NCBI GenBank assembly: GCA_009909005.1
Contig: JAAAOG010000064.1
Coordinates: 1-64,000 of the forward strand
Origin: Alphaproteobacteria bacterium
GTDB taxonomy: Bacteria > Pseudomonadota > Alphaproteobacteria > DSM-16000 > Inquilinaceae
Direction of reading: 5' to 3'
Length of the DNA: 64,000 nt
This document shows positions 38,056-45,471 of the stretch, one piece after another. The notes under the pieces are model-generated. The model made no database searches, was not told the origin of the DNA, and worked only from the letters and a program-made list of their open reading frames with translations. How positions within the stretch are numbered: position 1 is the stretch's first letter; every line of letters starts with the position of its first letter. A program made the translations under genes and the position numbers.

Positions 38056-38802
38056 ATGCAAATGCCGAGAGCGCAACCGAAAACCGGACGCAAATTGTCG
38101 GCCGCAAAGCTGGCGGGAATGCTCATGGCATCGCTCACGACGCTCGGCTCCGGCTTTTCAGCTGCGCAGGAGCATTGTCCGTCGTCACAGGGAGGCGCAT
38201 TCAATTCGCCTATGGCCTTCCATGTTATGTCCCCGGACGACAATCGGGACGTTCTTTTCGCCGTCGGGGAGATTGTGCCGGGTACGGCGCAAGAGTTTGA
38301 GGAAGCACTGAATGAGGCCGGGCGGATCGACGAGCTCTGGTTCCATTCACCAGGCGGCAATGGGCAAGAGGGGTTGGCGCTTGGCCGGAAGATCCGGGAG
38401 CGAGGGCTGTTCACACGGGTGCCTGCCGGCGCGACCTGCTTCAGCGCCTGTTCTTACGCGTTCCTTGGTGGCGTCCTTCGTGCTGCGCATCCCACCGCCT
38501 GTTACGGCGTTCACATGTTTACCTTTCATGTGGGTGCGGGAAACCTTGCAAGCCACGTAAGGCTGCAACTTGATCAAGTTGAAAATATCAATCAATTACG
38601 GGAAGTCAGCAGGGAGTTGGAACAGTATCTTGACGGTATCGAGCAAGATGCAGCCGAGTTAGCCCGGCATCGGGCAGATTACCTGATTGACATGTCAATA
38701 TCATTGACATTTCTTGTAGTGGCTTTCGAAACGCGCCATGAGGAGCAGTACTGGCTGACACCCGACGATTTGACGCGGTTGAATGTTCTAAACATGCAAT
38801 AA
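38056..38802 (+). CDS. Exported ClpP/crotonase-fold protein
   Basis: This 248-aa protein has an N-terminal export signal and a ClpP-like fold of the periplasmic-predicted COG3904 type. The glycine-rich segment is LWFHSPGGNGQEGLALGR at about residues 94-111. The nucleophile candidate is Ser130 in CFSACSYAF, and His153 in GVHMF is placed as in the ClpP Ser-His pair. It ends in a helical region (residues 165-215) and a hydrophobic stretch. Proteolysis is plausible but unproven. It begins 14 bp after the lipoprotein gene with GAGGAAC upstream, so the two probably form an operon. Confidence 0.7.
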   Translation: MQMPRAQPKTGRKLSAAKLAGMLMASLTTLGSGFSAAQEHCPSSQGGAFNSPMAFHVMSPDDNRDVLFAVGEIVPGTAQEFEEALNEAGRIDELWFHSPGGNGQEGLALGRKIRERGLFTRVPAGATCFSACSYAFLGGVLRAAHPTACYGVHMFTFHVGAGNLASHVRLQLDQVENINQLREVSRELEQYLDGIEQDAAELARHRADYLIDMSISLTFLVVAFETRHEEQYWLTPDDLTRLNVLNMQ

Positions 38803-38923: not shown

Positions 38924-39982
38924 CTATGAAAGCTCGTCCCAATAGGCAGAAAGATGCCGCTGAAGTATCTGGTTATACTCATCCGTCTCACGGAGCGCTC
39001 GCAGACCCTGATTGAAGTGATACAGGATGACGGTTGCGCGGGGATGAGTTTTCGGAACCAGTGCATAGAGTCCCTGGATCGACAAAGCCCGCGGGTGCGC
39101 CGTGATGCGGTCGGACAGCCCCATTCTATGGACTTCCAGTCGCCCCGTGAATTCGTTGATGGTCACGCCGTCGACCTCGCCATCCGCCAGCAGTTCGAAG
39201 CATTCGCGAACAGACCGCGGCTGGACCAACGTAATCTTGTCATGAACCAGCCAGCGACGACCGTTCTGGTCGAGATCGAAGGTATAGTAACCCGCCGGAC
39301 GGCACAGCGTACGGCCTTCCATGTCTTCATCGCGATCGAAGGGGATGGGGTTATCCTCGGAGATGAAGAGCATAACCAGCATCTCGAAGACCTGATCTGA
39401 AAACAGAAATGTCTCACACCGAAAACGGCCATCCTCGGACAGGACAGAGGCGTCGCCGCAGTCAGGCTTCAGCCATGGAAAGCCCATATCGAAAGACCGG
39501 TTCATCAGCAAAGGGTCAAGATGGGACGACCAGTCGTTGATCCATGTGACGCTGTGGGTCGGAGCCATGGGATTGGCATTGAAGGCGGCGTGAACAATCT
39601 CTGTGATCAACCCACCGCCCGAGAGAGTTTCGTCGGTGAACGGCGCGTAATCACTGGCCGTCAGAGATTCAATCTCGCCGGTTGCTTCCGGCGGGATGGG
39701 CACGAATTCCATGCTCGGAGTCAAACAGGGAATCGTGATCTCTGTTCCCGCCTGGATATTTGACGGGCCGCTTGGCAAGGCCTCCTGGTTTTGATAATAA
39801 ATGATGGACCATTGATCAGGATTGGCGTAGGCGCGCCGTGCAAGGTCAGTCAGGGTTTCATTCGGTTGGACGGTATAGGGCTCGTCGCAAGCTGGCACTT
39901 GTGACCATGCGTCGTCGCCCGAGACCAAAATGGCGAAAGCAACCACGCTCGCGAGCAGTAGAGTTCCATGTTTCCTGCACAT
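38924..39982 (-). CDS. Periplasmic LysM + solute-binding (SBP_bac_3-like) protein
   Basis: This 352-aa exported protein has a signal peptide (LLLASVVAFAILVSG, cleavage near DAWSQ). A LysM domain follows from about residue 33 (PYTVQPNETLTDLARRAYAN) to 85 (GTEITIPC). The rest resembles a family 3 solute-binding domain, with DYAPFTDETLSGGGLITEIV early and a final helical part ALVPKTHPRATVILYHFNQG. LysM would tether it to peptidoglycan. The ATG at 39982 has AAGGG upstream; 39997 and 40045 are also open. It lies 197 bp downstream of the STAND gene on the same strand. Confidence 0.72.
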   Translation of the reverse strand: MCRKHGTLLLASVVAFAILVSGDDAWSQVPACDEPYTVQPNETLTDLARRAYANPDQWSIIYYQNQEALPSGPSNIQAGTEITIPCLTPSMEFVPIPPEATGEIESLTASDYAPFTDETLSGGGLITEIVHAAFNANPMAPTHSVTWINDWSSHLDPLLMNRSFDMGFPWLKPDCGDASVLSEDGRFRCETFLFSDQVFEMLVMLFISEDNPIPFDRDEDMEGRTLCRPAGYYTFDLDQNGRRWLVHDKITLVQPRSVRECFELLADGEVDGVTINEFTGRLEVHRMGLSDRITAHPRALSIQGLYALVPKTHPRATVILYHFNQGLRALRETDEYNQILQRHLSAYWDELS

Positions 39983-40241
39983 CTTTGCGCCCTTCATTTC
40001 CGCAGTCTCGACCAAAACGTCAACACGCGTCTGTTTGACATCCAACTTTACATCCTACACGTTAACATCGTTCCGCCTTGGCCTGCAACTGAATTCATTA
40101 GCAGAACTGGTAGCGAGCTATCCGCGATCGCCTATTCCCGCCGGGTGCAGCGACGAATGTCTGAAATGGAGGTTTCGGATCTAAGCGAATAGCCCGGCTT
40201 GATGGCTTTGGTCAAGATTGTCCGGCCGTGATGAAGGGGTA

Positions 40242-43200
40242 TCACTCTTGTTGTGGGCTGGCCCGGAGCCTCTCAATCTGCTCTCTCACCCAGTCGAGCT
40301 CTTCCTGCGCTTGCGGGCTGGCATCAGGATGTTCGGCAAGGATCAAGGCGATGTCCTCGGCGGCCTCGAACCGACGAATGGCGTCGGCCCGCCGGCCGTC
40401 GGCCCGTTCCGCCATCGCCATGTTCACGAGGTTGAAGAACAAGTCGCGGTTCAGTTCGGGAGATCTGCCATAGTCATCGATGAGGCCCCGCGTGATCGCC
40501 AGGCTGTCACCATAAGCGTCTAGGGCCTGCTCCGCGTCTCCCCGGCGCAGGAGAACGTCCCCGACCATTTCATGGGAAAGCGACAGGTTTCGTTTCCACA
40601 GCACATTCGCGGGATTTATGTCGGCCAGTTCCCTGTTGGTTGCCAGGGCGCGGCGGTACGCCTCAAGAGCGCCGCTCAGGTCGTTGTGCTGTCGTCGAAT
40701 GTCCCCCACGCTGACCAAACCGGTGGCATAGTGAAGGAGCCATTGCGGATTGTCGGGATCCTCCACGGTGAGGCGCGCCATGAGGGCCACGCTGCGGCCG
40801 AAGTGCCTGAGCGCCCCGGATAGATCGCCCTCTTGCTTCAAGAGCCCGCCAAAACGGAGATGCGCAACGGCGAGGTCGTGCTGCCACTGGGCGTTCTCTG
40901 GCTCGTCTGCGGCCAGACGGTCTCGGATCTCCAGGCTCAGCCGATAGGTTTCAAGAGCCTCCGCGGTGTCTCCACGCATGCCGAGAACCTGAGCGACTCT
41001 CTCGTGCGCTAGCGAGAGATCGCGCAACCAGTCGGCGTTCCCGGGATCAAGCTCAACCAATCTCTGGTTGGATATCACGACTTCTCGATACTCTTCATGG
41101 GCGTCCTCGAGACTGCCTTGACGCAGATGACCGGCAGCAACGGCGCTCTGGCTGATGTAATAGTTCCGCTGCAACTCAAGATCGTCCGGATTGGCTGCGG
41201 CAAGCGCTTCGGCGATGGTCCGGCTCGCCCGATAGTTCTGCAAAGCACTTTCGTGATCATTCAATTCGCGCAAGACGTCGCCGAGTTTTCTGTAAGAGAC
41301 TGATAGCTTTCTCTGGACTTCAGTCTCTTCGAGACCACCCTGGGCCAGCGATTCCCGGATTTCAATGCTGGTGCGATAACGGTGAATGGCTTCTTCAAAG
41401 TCCCCCTCGGCGCGCCGGACGTCTCCGATCTTGTTATGAGCAAGGGCCAACTGACGCAGCCACTCCCGGTTCTCGGGCGCCGTCGCCACCAGCCGCTGCA
41501 TGATCTCAAGGCTGGCTTCATACTCGCCAAGTGCACCGACCAGGTCATTCTCAGTCCGGCGGGTATCGCCGCGCTCGATATAGGCGTCCGCAAGATCCTT
41601 CTGCCAGTCGAGTTCGTCGGGATGAGAGGCAACGAGTTCTTCGAGGGTCTCCACGGCGCGGCCGACCCGCTGCCGCTGACCCTCGGGGTCGCCGACGCTT
41701 TCCAGCGTGCGGTGGAACTCGAGATGCATCATGGCCTGTTTATGGCGCATTTGAGGGCTGTCAGCGCCCGCTTCGAACAGGCTGGCAAAAACATTCTCGG
41801 CGCGGTCGAGAATGTTGTTGATTGTCTGCAGCTGAACACCCTTGACGTCGCGCAATCCATTGGCGAGATCGACCACCAGGGCATCGGCTGCATCGGCAGC
41901 GATCCCAATATTTCTGTTTGCTTCGCGTTCCGCTTCGCGTGCAAGCAACCCCAGGAAAGCAGCCCCAAAAAAGAGGGCGGCAAAGAGTAAGGCCGTTCCT
42001 GTTATGAACCGTTCCCGCCGACGTTGCGATCGACGGGCAAGATCGACTGAAGCCGTGATGAAAGCCCGGGTCGGCTCCGGTAGCTCCCCGGGAAAACGGG
42101 CTGCAATGTTCTCTGCCTCCGCTAAAAGAACTTTGCCGTCGATTAGACAATCAGCGGGACGGCCGTATTCGTCCCAGCGGGCGCGAGCACGCTCGACGTC
42201 CTCGCGGATTCGAAAAAAGTCGGCATGGTCTTCCACAATCTTGCGCGCCCGCTGCCAGCTCTCAAGCACACGCTCGTGAGCGACGCGGATACTAGGGGCC
42301 GCCTCCTCCCTGCTTGTCGACACGAGGATCCGGGCGTCGACCAAAGCCTGGACAAGGCGATTGCTCGGCTCGTCCGCAACCGCCTCGGTCCACGGAACAG
42401 AACGCGCAGTCATGCGGACCGGGCCGGCCCCGTCGGCGGACCCTGCGGGCGTCACAAGCTGGCGCAGCAGACGCGGCAGGGCTGCCTTTTCCGCGTCGCC
42501 CAGGGGTGGTGCCAGGGCGCTTTCCGCCTCCTCGTCGATGGCGCCGTCCAGGCCGCCCATCTCATCGTAGGCGGCATGGGTCAGCCGAACTTCGTCGCCC
42601 TCCTTTGTCCGCTTTTCAAAGAGCCGGCTCAGCGTGAATTGCAGCAACGGCAGCATATCCGTGCGCTCGACGTCTTCCAGGATGCGATCCTCAAGCCGGC
42701 GGCCGGTCTCATCCGTCTCGAACACCAGGTGAGCGGCAGCGGCCGGCGCTCGGACGATTTCGGCCATTTCAGCCGGACCCGGTGGCCGGACATCGAGGCT
42801 TGCGCCCCCGGTTTTCAATTCCTGCAGCCCGGCCACGGAGACGTATGCTTCGTAGAAATCTGCGCGCACCGTGGCAATCACCCAAACCCGTCCGCTTGCC
42901 GCGAAGGCACGCAGCAGTTGGGCAAAGGCCTCTCGCGTTTCCGCCGTCACATCCGTCGCGAACAATTCATCAAGCTGATCAACCAGAAGAATAAGCCGGG
43001 CGTTCATCGGACGATCATAGCCGCCGGCGTGTCGCTCTGCGTCCGCCACCCGATCAAGGGCCCCGAGCACCGGCCTGATTGCCATGGAGTCGCCAAGCGC
43101 CAGCAGTCTTGCCAGAGCCGCCACGGACGAATAGTCGCTGTCGGCCAATTCTGGCAGGGCCGACGGCCGATCCTGCTCCTCCCACTCCAGCTCCTCACTA

Positions 43201-44105
43201 CTCTTGAGAAGCTGGGCTGCCAAGGCTGCAAAGGGGCCATCAGCGTGCTCGCCCGGCCGCATGCTTGCTACCCGCCAGATATCCACCGCCTGCACCGCAC
43301 CCGGCGCTGTCAGCCGCGGCACGAGGCCCGCGCGCGCCAGGGATGACTTCCCGGAGCCGCTCGGGCCGAGGAGCAGCAGAAATGGGGTATCGCGTTCCGC
43401 CGCATCCTTCAATAGCTCAACCGCCTGCCGCGTTTCGCGACTGCGACCGAAAAAGACCGGCGCGTGCCTTGCCCCGAATGCCGCCAGCCCTCGAAACGGC
43501 GTGTCCATCAGCTCGATCGGCCAGGTGGGCAAACGGCCCTTGATCAGATGGCTTTCGATCCAGGACTGCAACAGCGCTTCGGCTTGTTCCTCCAGGTCTT
43601 CCGTTGAACCAAAAGTGTGGAACGCGGCCTTGAAATGACCCTCCGAGGTCTCGAACCAGCGCGCGAAGAAGCTCTTCACGCGCTCCCATTCGCGTTTAAC
43701 GTCCTCGGACGCCGGGTCATCGAGCTGAACACGCGGAGGGTCTGGATAGCGGAAGACATAGACATCCGGAAATTCTTTGGCCTTGCTCGCCTCGATTGCC
43801 GAGAGGACCTCATAGGCCGTGCCGCTCGGGTACCGCTCGCCGTTCGGCATGCGGGGAAACTCGTCCGGCAGCGGTGTCCCGAGGCGGTGGCGCAGAACCG
43901 CAATCACGATGTCGCACTGGCAGGCCTCGGGAATCTGTGGCTGGAATGACCGGTCGGCCGTGTAGAAGCTTTTTTCCCAGCGAAGCGCCTGCAGTCGGGA
44001 ATCGTCATCAAGCTCGCCGTTCAGACGCTCGATAACCCGCTCTATGCGCTTTCGCTCAGTTTGCGCATCACCGGGAGATGAAATAAAAATCCGAACTTCT
44101 CTCAT
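40242..44105 (-). CDS. Membrane STAND NTPase: DUF4062-like, nSTAND, TM, TPR array
   Basis: This 1287-aa protein has four parts. Residues 1-185 start REVRIFISSPGDAQTERKR and match the DUF4062 type seen at the front of STAND proteins. Residues ~204-690 are an nSTAND NTPase with the FFGR entry, Walker A GPSGSGKSS (247-255), Walker B LILLVDQLDE (371-380) and a winged-helix-like part. One TM helix lies at ~701-722, preceded by RRSQRRRER. Residues ~735-1280 hold eight or nine TPR-like repeats of ~50 aa with conserved GD..R...D...AL..Y motifs. Positive charge before the TM puts the NTPase in the cytoplasm and the TPRs outside. STAND proteins often act in stress or phage sensing. Confidence 0.82.
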   Translation of the reverse strand: MREVRIFISSPGDAQTERKRIERVIERLNGELDDDSRLQALRWEKSFYTADRSFQPQIPEACQCDIVIAVLRHRLGTPLPDEFPRMPNGERYPSGTAYEVLSAIEASKAKEFPDVYVFRYPDPPRVQLDDPASEDVKREWERVKSFFARWFETSEGHFKAAFHTFGSTEDLEEQAEALLQSWIESHLIKGRLPTWPIELMDTPFRGLAAFGARHAPVFFGRSRETRQAVELLKDAAERDTPFLLLLGPSGSGKSSLARAGLVPRLTAPGAVQAVDIWRVASMRPGEHADGPFAALAAQLLKSSEELEWEEQDRPSALPELADSDYSSVAALARLLALGDSMAIRPVLGALDRVADAERHAGGYDRPMNARLILLVDQLDELFATDVTAETREAFAQLLRAFAASGRVWVIATVRADFYEAYVSVAGLQELKTGGASLDVRPPGPAEMAEIVRAPAAAAHLVFETDETGRRLEDRILEDVERTDMLPLLQFTLSRLFEKRTKEGDEVRLTHAAYDEMGGLDGAIDEEAESALAPPLGDAEKAALPRLLRQLVTPAGSADGAGPVRMTARSVPWTEAVADEPSNRLVQALVDARILVSTSREEAAPSIRVAHERVLESWQRARKIVEDHADFFRIREDVERARARWDEYGRPADCLIDGKVLLAEAENIAARFPGELPEPTRAFITASVDLARRSQRRRERFITGTALLFAALFFGAAFLGLLAREAEREANRNIGIAADAADALVVDLANGLRDVKGVQLQTINNILDRAENVFASLFEAGADSPQMRHKQAMMHLEFHRTLESVGDPEGQRQRVGRAVETLEELVASHPDELDWQKDLADAYIERGDTRRTENDLVGALGEYEASLEIMQRLVATAPENREWLRQLALAHNKIGDVRRAEGDFEEAIHRYRTSIEIRESLAQGGLEETEVQRKLSVSYRKLGDVLRELNDHESALQNYRASRTIAEALAAANPDDLELQRNYYISQSAVAAGHLRQGSLEDAHEEYREVVISNQRLVELDPGNADWLRDLSLAHERVAQVLGMRGDTAEALETYRLSLEIRDRLAADEPENAQWQHDLAVAHLRFGGLLKQEGDLSGALRHFGRSVALMARLTVEDPDNPQWLLHYATGLVSVGDIRRQHNDLSGALEAYRRALATNRELADINPANVLWKRNLSLSHEMVGDVLLRRGDAEQALDAYGDSLAITRGLIDDYGRSPELNRDLFFNLVNMAMAERADGRRADAIRRFEAAEDIALILAEHPDASPQAQEELDWVREQIERLRASPQQE

Positions 44106-44254: not shown

Positions 44255-44448
44255 TCCGCTCCCTTCCCGGTCGCTGCCGTCGGCCCGACGTCATGAGGCT
44301 GTGAGCCAGGCCGGCACAGCGGCCGCTCCGCTGACCATCCAGAACCGAGCCGGCCCGCCGATTTTCTCGCGAGAAGCGTCGCATGGGCTGGGCAGCACGG
44401 CATCATCGGAGTACAATAGTGTGCCGTCGCGATACCGCCTTCCCAAGC
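44255..44448. promoter_or_regulatory. Divergent region STAND / Rpn
   Basis: This is the gap between two divergent units. A TACAAT -10-like box at 44412-44417 faces the Rpn gene, without a convincing -35. No clear promoter for the minus-strand STAND gene was found. No other feature is visible. Confidence 0.3.
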
Positions 44449-45471
44449 ATGGCCGAAATTGTCACCCCGCACGACAAGCTGTTCCGGGCGCTGCTCGACG
44501 ATCCCGGGCGCGCCGAAAGCCTCATCCGGGATTATCTGCCGGCGCCCTGGCGCGCCGTCCTTGGCACGGCCAGGCCGAAAACTGTCGATGCCACATTCGT
44601 CGATGCGCAACTGAAGGGCACGCAAAGCGACCGGCTTTTTCAAGTCGAACTGACAGACGGCCGGCCTGCCCTGGTCTATGTGCTGCTTGAGCACAAGAGC
44701 ACGCCGGATCCCGGGACTCCCTATCAAATTATGACCTATATGCTGCGCATCTGGGAGCGCTATGCACAAGGCCAGCCCAAGAGGCTGCGGGCTGTCCCGC
44801 CGATCTTTCCCATGGTATTCTACCATGGCGGGCCGGACTGGACGGTCCCGACCGCGATCCTCGACTGCATCGACGGGGAGGAGGCCGTCAAGGATCTCGT
44901 GCATGATTTCCGCTACACGCTGCATGATCTGAAGCCGATCGATTACGATCGTCTGTCCGAGAATCCCAGCCTGCGTGCGGGACTGGCGGCGCTGAAATAT
45001 TCCTCGGAGCGCCGGCTGAAAGCGGAAACGCTCGCCCGGATCCTTCTCGATGTCCCGGGCGGTGAACCCATCGAACGGCAGGTTCTCGAATATGCAATGC
45101 GGGTCTACAATATCACCAGGGAAAGTCTGCAGACCGCCATCTCTCTGGCGGAAACCAGGAGGAGCGAGGGTGTCGTGACCACGATCGCAGAGGAATTGCT
45201 GAAGGAAGGGGAAGAACGCGGGATTGCCATCGGCGAGAAACGCGGCATCGCGCTGGGCGAGGCACGGGGCGAGGCACGGGGCGAGGCCCGCGGCGAGGCG
45301 CGCGGTTTCGCGAAGGCCGTGGCGCGCACGCTCGAACGGCGCTTCGGCCCCTTGAGCGGATCCCAGCTTGCCCGCATTCAGGCCCTGTCGGCGTCGGAGC
45401 TGGAGGCGCTGATCGACCGGGCAGTCACGGCGCCGACGCTGGACGCCGTGTTCGAGGAGAGCGCGCATTGA
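44449..45471 (+). CDS. Rpn family recombination-promoting nuclease
   Basis: This 340-aa protein is of the Rpn/YhgA-like group (PD-(D/E)xK fold), often listed as a putative transposase. It begins TPHDKLFRALLDDPGRAESL, as the family does. The likely catalytic residues are the Asp in TVDATFVDAQ and the Glu-x-Lys of VLLEHKS, followed by the YQIMTYMLRIWERY helix. The C-terminal part has a run of GEAR repeats encoded by a 12-bp tandem repeat and a final DUF4351-like helical domain. Rpn proteins are DNA nucleases tied to recombination and defence. The ATG at 44449 fits the family start. Confidence 0.85.
   Translation: MAEIVTPHDKLFRALLDDPGRAESLIRDYLPAPWRAVLGTARPKTVDATFVDAQLKGTQSDRLFQVELTDGRPALVYVLLEHKSTPDPGTPYQIMTYMLRIWERYAQGQPKRLRAVPPIFPMVFYHGGPDWTVPTAILDCIDGEEAVKDLVHDFRYTLHDLKPIDYDRLSENPSLRAGLAALKYSSERRLKAETLARILLDVPGGEPIERQVLEYAMRVYNITRESLQTAISLAETRRSEGVVTTIAEELLKEGEERGIAIGEKRGIALGEARGEARGEARGEARGFAKAVARTLERRFGPLSGSQLARIQALSASELEALIDRAVTAPTLDAVFEESAH
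45256..45303. repeat. Four 12-bp tandem repeats in the Rpn gene
   Basis: GGCGAGGCACGG occurs four times in a row with third-position changes, encoding Gly-Glu-Ala-Arg each time. Copy-number change would keep the frame. Confidence 0.85.

What the first reader, a model, noticed from the sequence alone, without database searches (positions are those of the whole stretch)
40242..44105. Membrane-spanning STAND NTPase with predicted periplasmic TPR sensor
Seen: DUF4062-like front, nSTAND NTPase with intact Walker A and B, one TM at ~701-722, and eight or nine ~50-aa TPR-like repeats. Known: in Avs and other STAND defence proteins an effector end, central NTPase and repeat sensor are the standard layout, usually all cytoplasmic. 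Inference: the RRSQRRRER charge before the TM puts the TPR array in the periplasm, so this protein would sense an envelope event (phage adsorption, wall damage) and signal to a cytoplasmic effector part.
Basis: partly seen in the sequence, partly recalled or inferred. Interest (0 to 1): 0.75.

Follow-up and report, generated by a model that had tools for sequence, protein, structure and literature searches.

The report
Membrane-spanning bacterial NLR-like TIR-type receptor
This is a 1287-residue bacterial sensor protein that appears to cross the inner membrane once, with a predicted NAD-destroying head and ATP switch inside the cell and a ten-repeat TPR arm outside; relatives show this layout is widespread and that the outside part is very likely exported, but what it senses, and whether it fights phage, is not shown.

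Summary
The ORF is real: 40242-44105(-), 1287 aa, DUF4062 (1-190), nSTAND1 NTPase (203-651, E 6.7e-84), one TM (700-722) after RRSQRRRER, then ten exact 48-aa TPR-like repeats plus a cap. Among 73 nSTAND1 proteins from my searches, 59 carry a hydrophobic segment just behind the NTPase; K/R is higher before it than after in 57 of 59, never lower. Beyond the TM, cysteines come in even numbers (41 of 47 cysteine-containing proteins; before the TM 28 of 56) and are gained or lost as pairs, a disulfide signature of an exported domain. Heads are swapped: DUF4062, TIR, ToxR/CadC-type DNA-binding, class III cyclase, kinase, trypsin. DUF4062 is now reported as a TIR-like NADase; its catalytic Glu position (E99) is invariant in 17 of 17 homologues here. 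Against a strict periplasmic-sensor reading: two natural pairs (85% and 70% identical) differ by precise absence of the TM, with the array under purifying selection in both. No defence genes were found nearby. Best reading: a membrane-spanning NLR-like receptor that turns an envelope signal into NAD+ loss. New variant of a known kind.

The parts
43536..44105 (-). DUF4062 (TIR-like) head, residues 1-190; candidate catalytic Glu E99 at 43809-43811
   Evidence: Pfam DUF4062; invariant F7 S10 P11 D13 E17 R18 W43 Q55 I58 G76 G95 T96 E99 A103 in 17 homologues; alpha/beta model with E99 in the helix after the third strand; NADase activity of DUF4062 from PMC13174449
42153..43499 (-). nSTAND1 NTPase, residues 203-651; Walker A 43341-43367, Walker B 42960-42995
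   Evidence: Pfam PF20703 6.7e-84, motif positions
42009..42035 (-). Arg-rich segment RRSQRRRER, residues 691-699 (predicted cytoplasmic side)
   Evidence: sequence; same feature in relatives
41940..42008 (-). single transmembrane helix, residues 700-722
   Evidence: hydropathy 2.28, only segment above 1.7; conserved position 28-98 residues behind nSTAND1 in 59 of 73 homologues
41754..41939 (-). post-TM helical stalk, residues 723-784; the TM helix and stalk are modelled as one helix (703-752, low confidence in its first part)
   Evidence: AlphaFold model; counterpart of the AEDLINYMLFDLRDKL...GRL linker in relatives
40314..41753 (-). TPR-like array, ten 48-residue repeats, residues 785-1264, predicted periplasmic
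   Evidence: lag-48 self-identity, Pfam TPR_12 and others, model and Foldseek
40245..40313 (-). capping helix, residues 1265-1287
   Evidence: AlphaFold model

Best explanation
A single-pass inner-membrane receptor that combines NLR-type machinery with a Toll-like topology. The DUF4062 head and the nSTAND1 ATP switch are cytoplasmic; the TM carries the ten-repeat TPR array into the periplasm. Binding of a periplasmic or envelope ligand to the array is proposed to release the nSTAND1 switch (ADP to ATP, as in other STAND proteins) and cluster the molecules in the membrane plane, bringing the TIR-like heads together so that they hydrolyse NAD+ and stop the cell. Supported by computation: the domains, the TM, the orientation bias, the export signature in homologues, and conservation of the catalytic Glu position. 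Inferred: ligand binding, oligomerisation, NAD+ loss, and an anti-phage or anti-competitor purpose.
For: Architecture. E99 invariant in 17 of 17 DUF4062 heads and placed in the helix after the third strand of the model, as for TIR NADases; DUF4062 reported as a TIR-like NADase needing this Glu for phage defence (PMC13174449). TM at the same place in 13 of 17 readable nSTAND1 hits from the class and 59 of 73 overall; K/R higher before the TM in 57, lower in none, p 4e-11. In the tree the window protein lies in a 34-row clade (support 100) with 33 TM-bearing members. Post-TM cysteine counts even in 41 of 47 (p 1.8e-7), pre-TM 28 of 56; still 23.5 of 26 when clustered at 40% identity. Cysteine pairs are gained and lost together. 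Other heads in TM-bearing relatives are classical cytoplasmic outputs: Trans_reg_C, class III cyclase, protein kinase, TIR. A paralogue in the same genome has TIR-nSTAND1, a similar R-flanked hydrophobic segment, and an array 45% identical.
Against: This protein has no cysteine after its TM, and soluble arrays of the same type also have none (L024), so the disulfide argument is by family only. Two natural pairs lack the TM in one member while the array stays under purifying selection (L119/L120, L095/L096; dN/dS 0.40-0.50 in the array). The DUF4062 model matched flavodoxin-like folds rather than TIR specifically in PDB. No defence genes found nearby. The NADase claim rests on a preprint studying proteins for which no STAND domain or TM is described in bacteria.
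Confidence: 0.6

Rival explanations
1. Membrane-tethered but cytoplasmic sensor: the hydrophobic helix anchors the protein, or inserts only on activation, and the TPR array reads a cytoplasmic ligand as in Avs-type STANDs.
For: L119/L120 (85% identical) and L095/L096 (70%) differ by absence of the TM segment while array and heads stay constrained; a TIR-nSTAND1-TPR relative with no TM exists (L024); the array class lacks cysteine whether or not a TM is present.
Against: A single TM with strong positive-inside charge and a cytoplasmic N-terminus places the C-terminus outside; 57 of 59 homologues share that bias; post-TM domains of sister clades, including the Trans_reg_C-headed proteins, show paired cysteines; only 1 of 34 in this clade lacks the TM.
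Confidence: 0.22
2. Membrane receptor of the same topology whose job is envelope-stress or developmental signalling rather than defence; NAD+ turnover modulates physiology or makes a signal instead of killing.
For: Relatives in the same clade carry Trans_reg_C, class III cyclase or kinase heads, ordinary regulatory outputs; surroundings are ordinary chromosomal genes; a LysM gene with a likely signal sequence lies about 200 bp downstream on the same strand.
Against: DUF4062 and TIR heads are linked to defence and abortive infection (PMC13174449); the gene is patchily distributed (matches at E<=1e-20 in 9 of 61 genomes, none over the whole length outside its own); the LysM gene is rare and was not found beside other nSTAND1 genes.
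Confidence: 0.15
3. A decayed or silent gene.
For: No sigma-70-like promoter match was found upstream on its strand, which is weak evidence.
Against: Intact 1287-codon frame, intact Walker motifs and E99, ten repeats in perfect register.
Confidence: 0.03

Closest known systems
Swarozyc (DUF4062 NADase defence, PMC13174449)
   Same: DUF4062 head with the conserved Glu; NAD+ loss as proposed output
   Different: Swarozyc has a winged-helix auxiliary domain that binds phage portal; no STAND NTPase and no TM are described
TEP1 / NWD1 / NPHP3 (eukaryotic DUF4062-STAND proteins)
   Same: DUF4062 next to a STAND-class NTPase, several with C-terminal repeats
   Different: NACHT-type NTPase per the preprint; no membrane-spanning segment is described there; of the four human proteins tested only TEP1 was an active NADase
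Avs and other bacterial STAND defence proteins
   Same: effector - STAND NTPase - repeat sensor order
   Different: no Avs profile hit; nSTAND1-class NTPase; membrane-spanning
CadC/ToxR-type one-component receptors
   Same: cytoplasmic output, one TM, periplasmic sensor; sister-clade nSTAND1 proteins carry the same kind of Trans_reg_C head
   Different: here an ATP switch sits between output and TM, and the output is a TIR-like domain
nSTAND1 proteins with TIR/trypsin/CHAT heads and WD40 or TPR sensors in Actinobacteria, Cyanobacteria and Proteobacteria
   Same: same NTPase, same TM position, same modular logic
   Different: different head and sensor; this protein is one member of that modular set

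Membership tests
nSTAND1 NTPases (PF20703) | profile match over the whole domain with Walker A and B | tested here: met
   283 bits against cut-off 27.1, profile 1-378 of 379; motifs
DUF4062 (PF13271) | profile match and conserved catalytic-site Glu | tested here: met
   25 bits over cut-off in the genome search though 20 bits in the full-protein scan; E99 invariant in 17 of 17
TIR-like NADase | TIR-like fold | tested here: inconclusive
   alpha/beta model, pLDDT 85, strand/helix order compatible with TIR; Foldseek top hits are flavodoxin-like, none below 0.001
TIR-like NADase | NAD+ hydrolysis | not testable with these tools
   needs enzyme assay
Swarozyc | DUF4062 plus winged-helix portal-binding auxiliary domain | tested here: not met
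   the C-terminal part is nSTAND1-TM-TPR
Avs | match to Avs profiles | tested here: not met
   PADLOC scan gives only partial PDC-S60 (residues 2-79), mad8/mad3 P-loop and TPR hits
Membrane-spanning nSTAND1 receptors | one TM behind nSTAND1 with K/R-rich inner flank | tested here: met
   KD 2.28; K/R 6 before, 3 after
Membrane-spanning nSTAND1 receptors | exported sensor | tested here: inconclusive
   strong for the family; uninformative for this protein, which has no cysteine after the TM
Anti-phage defence gene | lies in a defence island, or protects | tested here: inconclusive
   no defence genes found among the neighbours scanned; protection not testable here

The most novel reading that the evidence does not exclude
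A broad bacterial receptor class in which an NLR-type ATP switch sits between an exported repeat sensor and an interchangeable cytoplasmic output (TIR-like NADase, cyclase, kinase, DNA-binding, protease): transmembrane NLRs. Some lineages move the same receptor between periplasm and cytoplasm by gaining or losing a cassette of about 35 residues that holds the TM.
Probability: 0.5. Interest if true: 0.75.

Novelty: new variant of a known kind. Interest (0 to 1): 0.58.

Why it matters
Characterised bacterial STAND immune sensors read ligands inside the cell. A class with an exported sensor and a TIR-like NADase inside would be a bacterial counterpart that joins Toll-like topology with an NLR switch, and would let cells answer envelope events before or during infection. 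The claim is directly testable by topology fusions and by natural pairs that differ mainly by the TM.

Tried and rejected
Cysteine absence after the TM as direct proof for this protein: rejected, because soluble arrays of the same type also lack cysteine (L024). Avs membership: rejected. Swarozyc membership: rejected on architecture. A functional operon with the downstream LysM/solute-binding-like gene (38924-40045): kept only as a lead; a homologue was found in one of 60 other related genomes and not beside other nSTAND1 genes. Foldseek proof of a TIR fold: inconclusive. A first cysteine/TM tabulation used over-extended domain ends and was replaced. The genome-contig scan gave only four distant relatives. 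Phage records gave one unverified contig.

Full report
Observation. The window encodes on its minus strand an intact 1287-codon ORF, 40242-44105. Pfam finds nSTAND1 at 203-651 (6.7e-84) and TPR families from about 800 on; DUF4062 lies at the N-terminus, above its cut-off in the genome search and just below it in the whole-protein scan. Walker A (247-255) and Walker B (371-382) are intact. One segment only has membrane-level hydropathy, 700-722, directly after RRSQRRRER. The repeats are ten units of exactly 48 residues, 785-1264, plus a cap. AlphaFold gives a confident TPR superhelix (mean pLDDT 89) whose nearest solved folds include OGT and LGN TPR domains. The TM helix runs on into the stalk as one long helix in the model, though its first part has low confidence.

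What the head is. A 2026 preprint (PMC13174449) reports that DUF4062 is a TIR-like NADase, active in a phage-defence system named Swarozyc and in human TEP1, with one catalytic Glu. In 17 DUF4062 heads from nSTAND1 proteins collected here, E99 of the window protein, in the motif SGTxxE, is invariant along with F7, S10, P11, D13, E17, R18, W43, Q55, I58, G76, G95, T96 and A103. In the model E99 lies near the start of the helix after the third strand, where TIR NADases carry their Glu (TIR geometry from general knowledge). Foldseek against PDB returned flavodoxin-like folds only, so the TIR assignment rests on the preprint and the motif.

Is the TM special? No, it is common in the family. An nSTAND1 family search of 289 genomes of the class gave 18 strong hits in 16 genomes; of 17 readable proteins 13 have the same R-rich flank and TM. 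Adding the phylum and plasmid-borne actinobacterial and cyanobacterial proteins gave 73 proteins, 59 with the segment, mostly 28 to 60 residues behind the NTPase; K/R is higher before the TM in 57 and lower in none. The 73 are not a random sample of the family, since many were reached through queries that included the TM. Heads differ (DUF4062, TIR, Trans_reg_C, class III cyclase, protein kinase, trypsin, caspase-like/CHAT) and sensors differ (WD40, TPR, other).

Is the far side exported? If the part behind the TM lies in an oxidising compartment, cysteines should come in pairs. Among TM-bearing proteins with any cysteine behind the TM, 41 of 47 have an even number (p 1.8e-7); before the TM it is 28 of 56. 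Clustering sensors at 40% identity leaves 23.5 of 26 even. TM-less proteins show 3 of 8 (Fisher p 0.005). Alignments show pairs gained and lost together: columns 477/506 in nine of ten Trans_reg_C-headed proteins and both absent in the tenth; 378/421, 273/280 and 938/965 in the actinobacterial set; 916/955 in DUF4062-propeller proteins. This supports an exported sensor for the class. The window protein has no cysteine there, so for it the argument is by descent: the tree puts it with L019 and L083 (support 99) inside a 34-protein clade of which 33 have the TM.

Counter-evidence. L119 and L120 (TIR-nSTAND1-TPR) are 85% identical over 1086 residues and differ by a clean 35-codon absence of the TM; L095 and L096 (DUF4062-nSTAND1-TPR, the closest architecture to the window protein) are 70% identical with the same kind of difference. 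Head, NTPase and array are under purifying selection in both pairs (dN/dS 0.27-0.50). So an array of this type can be kept without export. Either such receptors change compartment and ligand, or the array is not exported in all TM-bearing members. This is why topology of the window protein stays at moderate confidence.

Genomic setting. The genome has a second strong nSTAND1 protein: TIR-nSTAND1-(R-flanked hydrophobic segment)-TPR on another contig, whose array is 45% identical to this one (52% over its first 187 residues) while the NTPase regions are much less alike, so sensor modules and heads are shuffled. Neighbours are ordinary: NMT1-type binding protein, epimerase, glycine-zipper protein, a LysM-containing protein about 200 bp downstream on the same strand, Rpn-type nuclease, oxidoreductase, response regulator, histidine kinase, glycosyltransferase, symporter. 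None of the four nearest neighbours scanned matches PADLOC.

Known work. nSTAND1 is named in PMC8195603. PMC10907252 predicts a periplasmic location for the NACHT and C-lectin domains of one DGR target. PMC7159879 describes membrane-associated conflict systems. My searches of the held papers found no description of nSTAND1 proteins as a transmembrane receptor class with an exported sensor; subscription papers, including Leipe 2004, were not readable, so priority is not settled.

Verdict. Observation confirmed; interpretation partly supported and sharpened: a transmembrane nSTAND1 receptor with a TIR-like NADase head. The phage or envelope trigger is untested.

Noticed in passing
L023:10906-14217 (same genome, contig C208): Second nSTAND1 receptor of this genome: TIR_2-nSTAND1, a moderately hydrophobic R-flanked segment, a long Ala/Glu-rich stretch that looks like a coiled coil, and a TPR array 45% identical to the window protein's.
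   Followed up: partly
window 38924-40045 (-): LysM protein with a likely signal sequence and a solute-binding-like body, about 200 bp downstream on the same strand; rare (one homologue among 60 related genomes); candidate partner.
   Followed up: partly
window 44383-45471 (+): Rpn-family (PF04754, DUF4351) nuclease/putative transposase gene divergent from the receptor gene.
   Followed up: no
L119 vs L120; L095 vs L096: Near-identical receptors with and without a TM cassette of about 35 residues, both copies under purifying selection: a natural compartment-switch experiment.
   Followed up: yes
L132, L133, L100: Class III cyclase-type head joined to nSTAND1-TM (Pfam match in L132 and L100; WD40 confirmed in L132; L132 and L133 are Sinorhizobium/Ensifer plasmids).
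   Followed up: partly
L097:2306-8287: Protein kinase-nSTAND1-TM-WD40 protein of 1993 residues.
   Followed up: no
L149, L150: Actinobacterial nSTAND1 proteins with a trypsin-like N-terminus, without the TM, whose C-terminus reads like a histidine kinase (MSHELRTPLN).
   Followed up: no
L024, L025: TPR arrays made of almost identical repeats (recent expansion), one in TIR-nSTAND1-TPR, one behind a ParA-like ATPase.
   Followed up: no
L140 (MT835531.1): nSTAND1-TM protein with an N-terminus resembling an SARP/BTAD-type regulator, in a contig deposited as unverified phage from human faeces.
   Followed up: no
window 38056-38802 (+): 248-residue protein with a weak ClpP-like match, not assigned by Pfam.
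   Followed up: no
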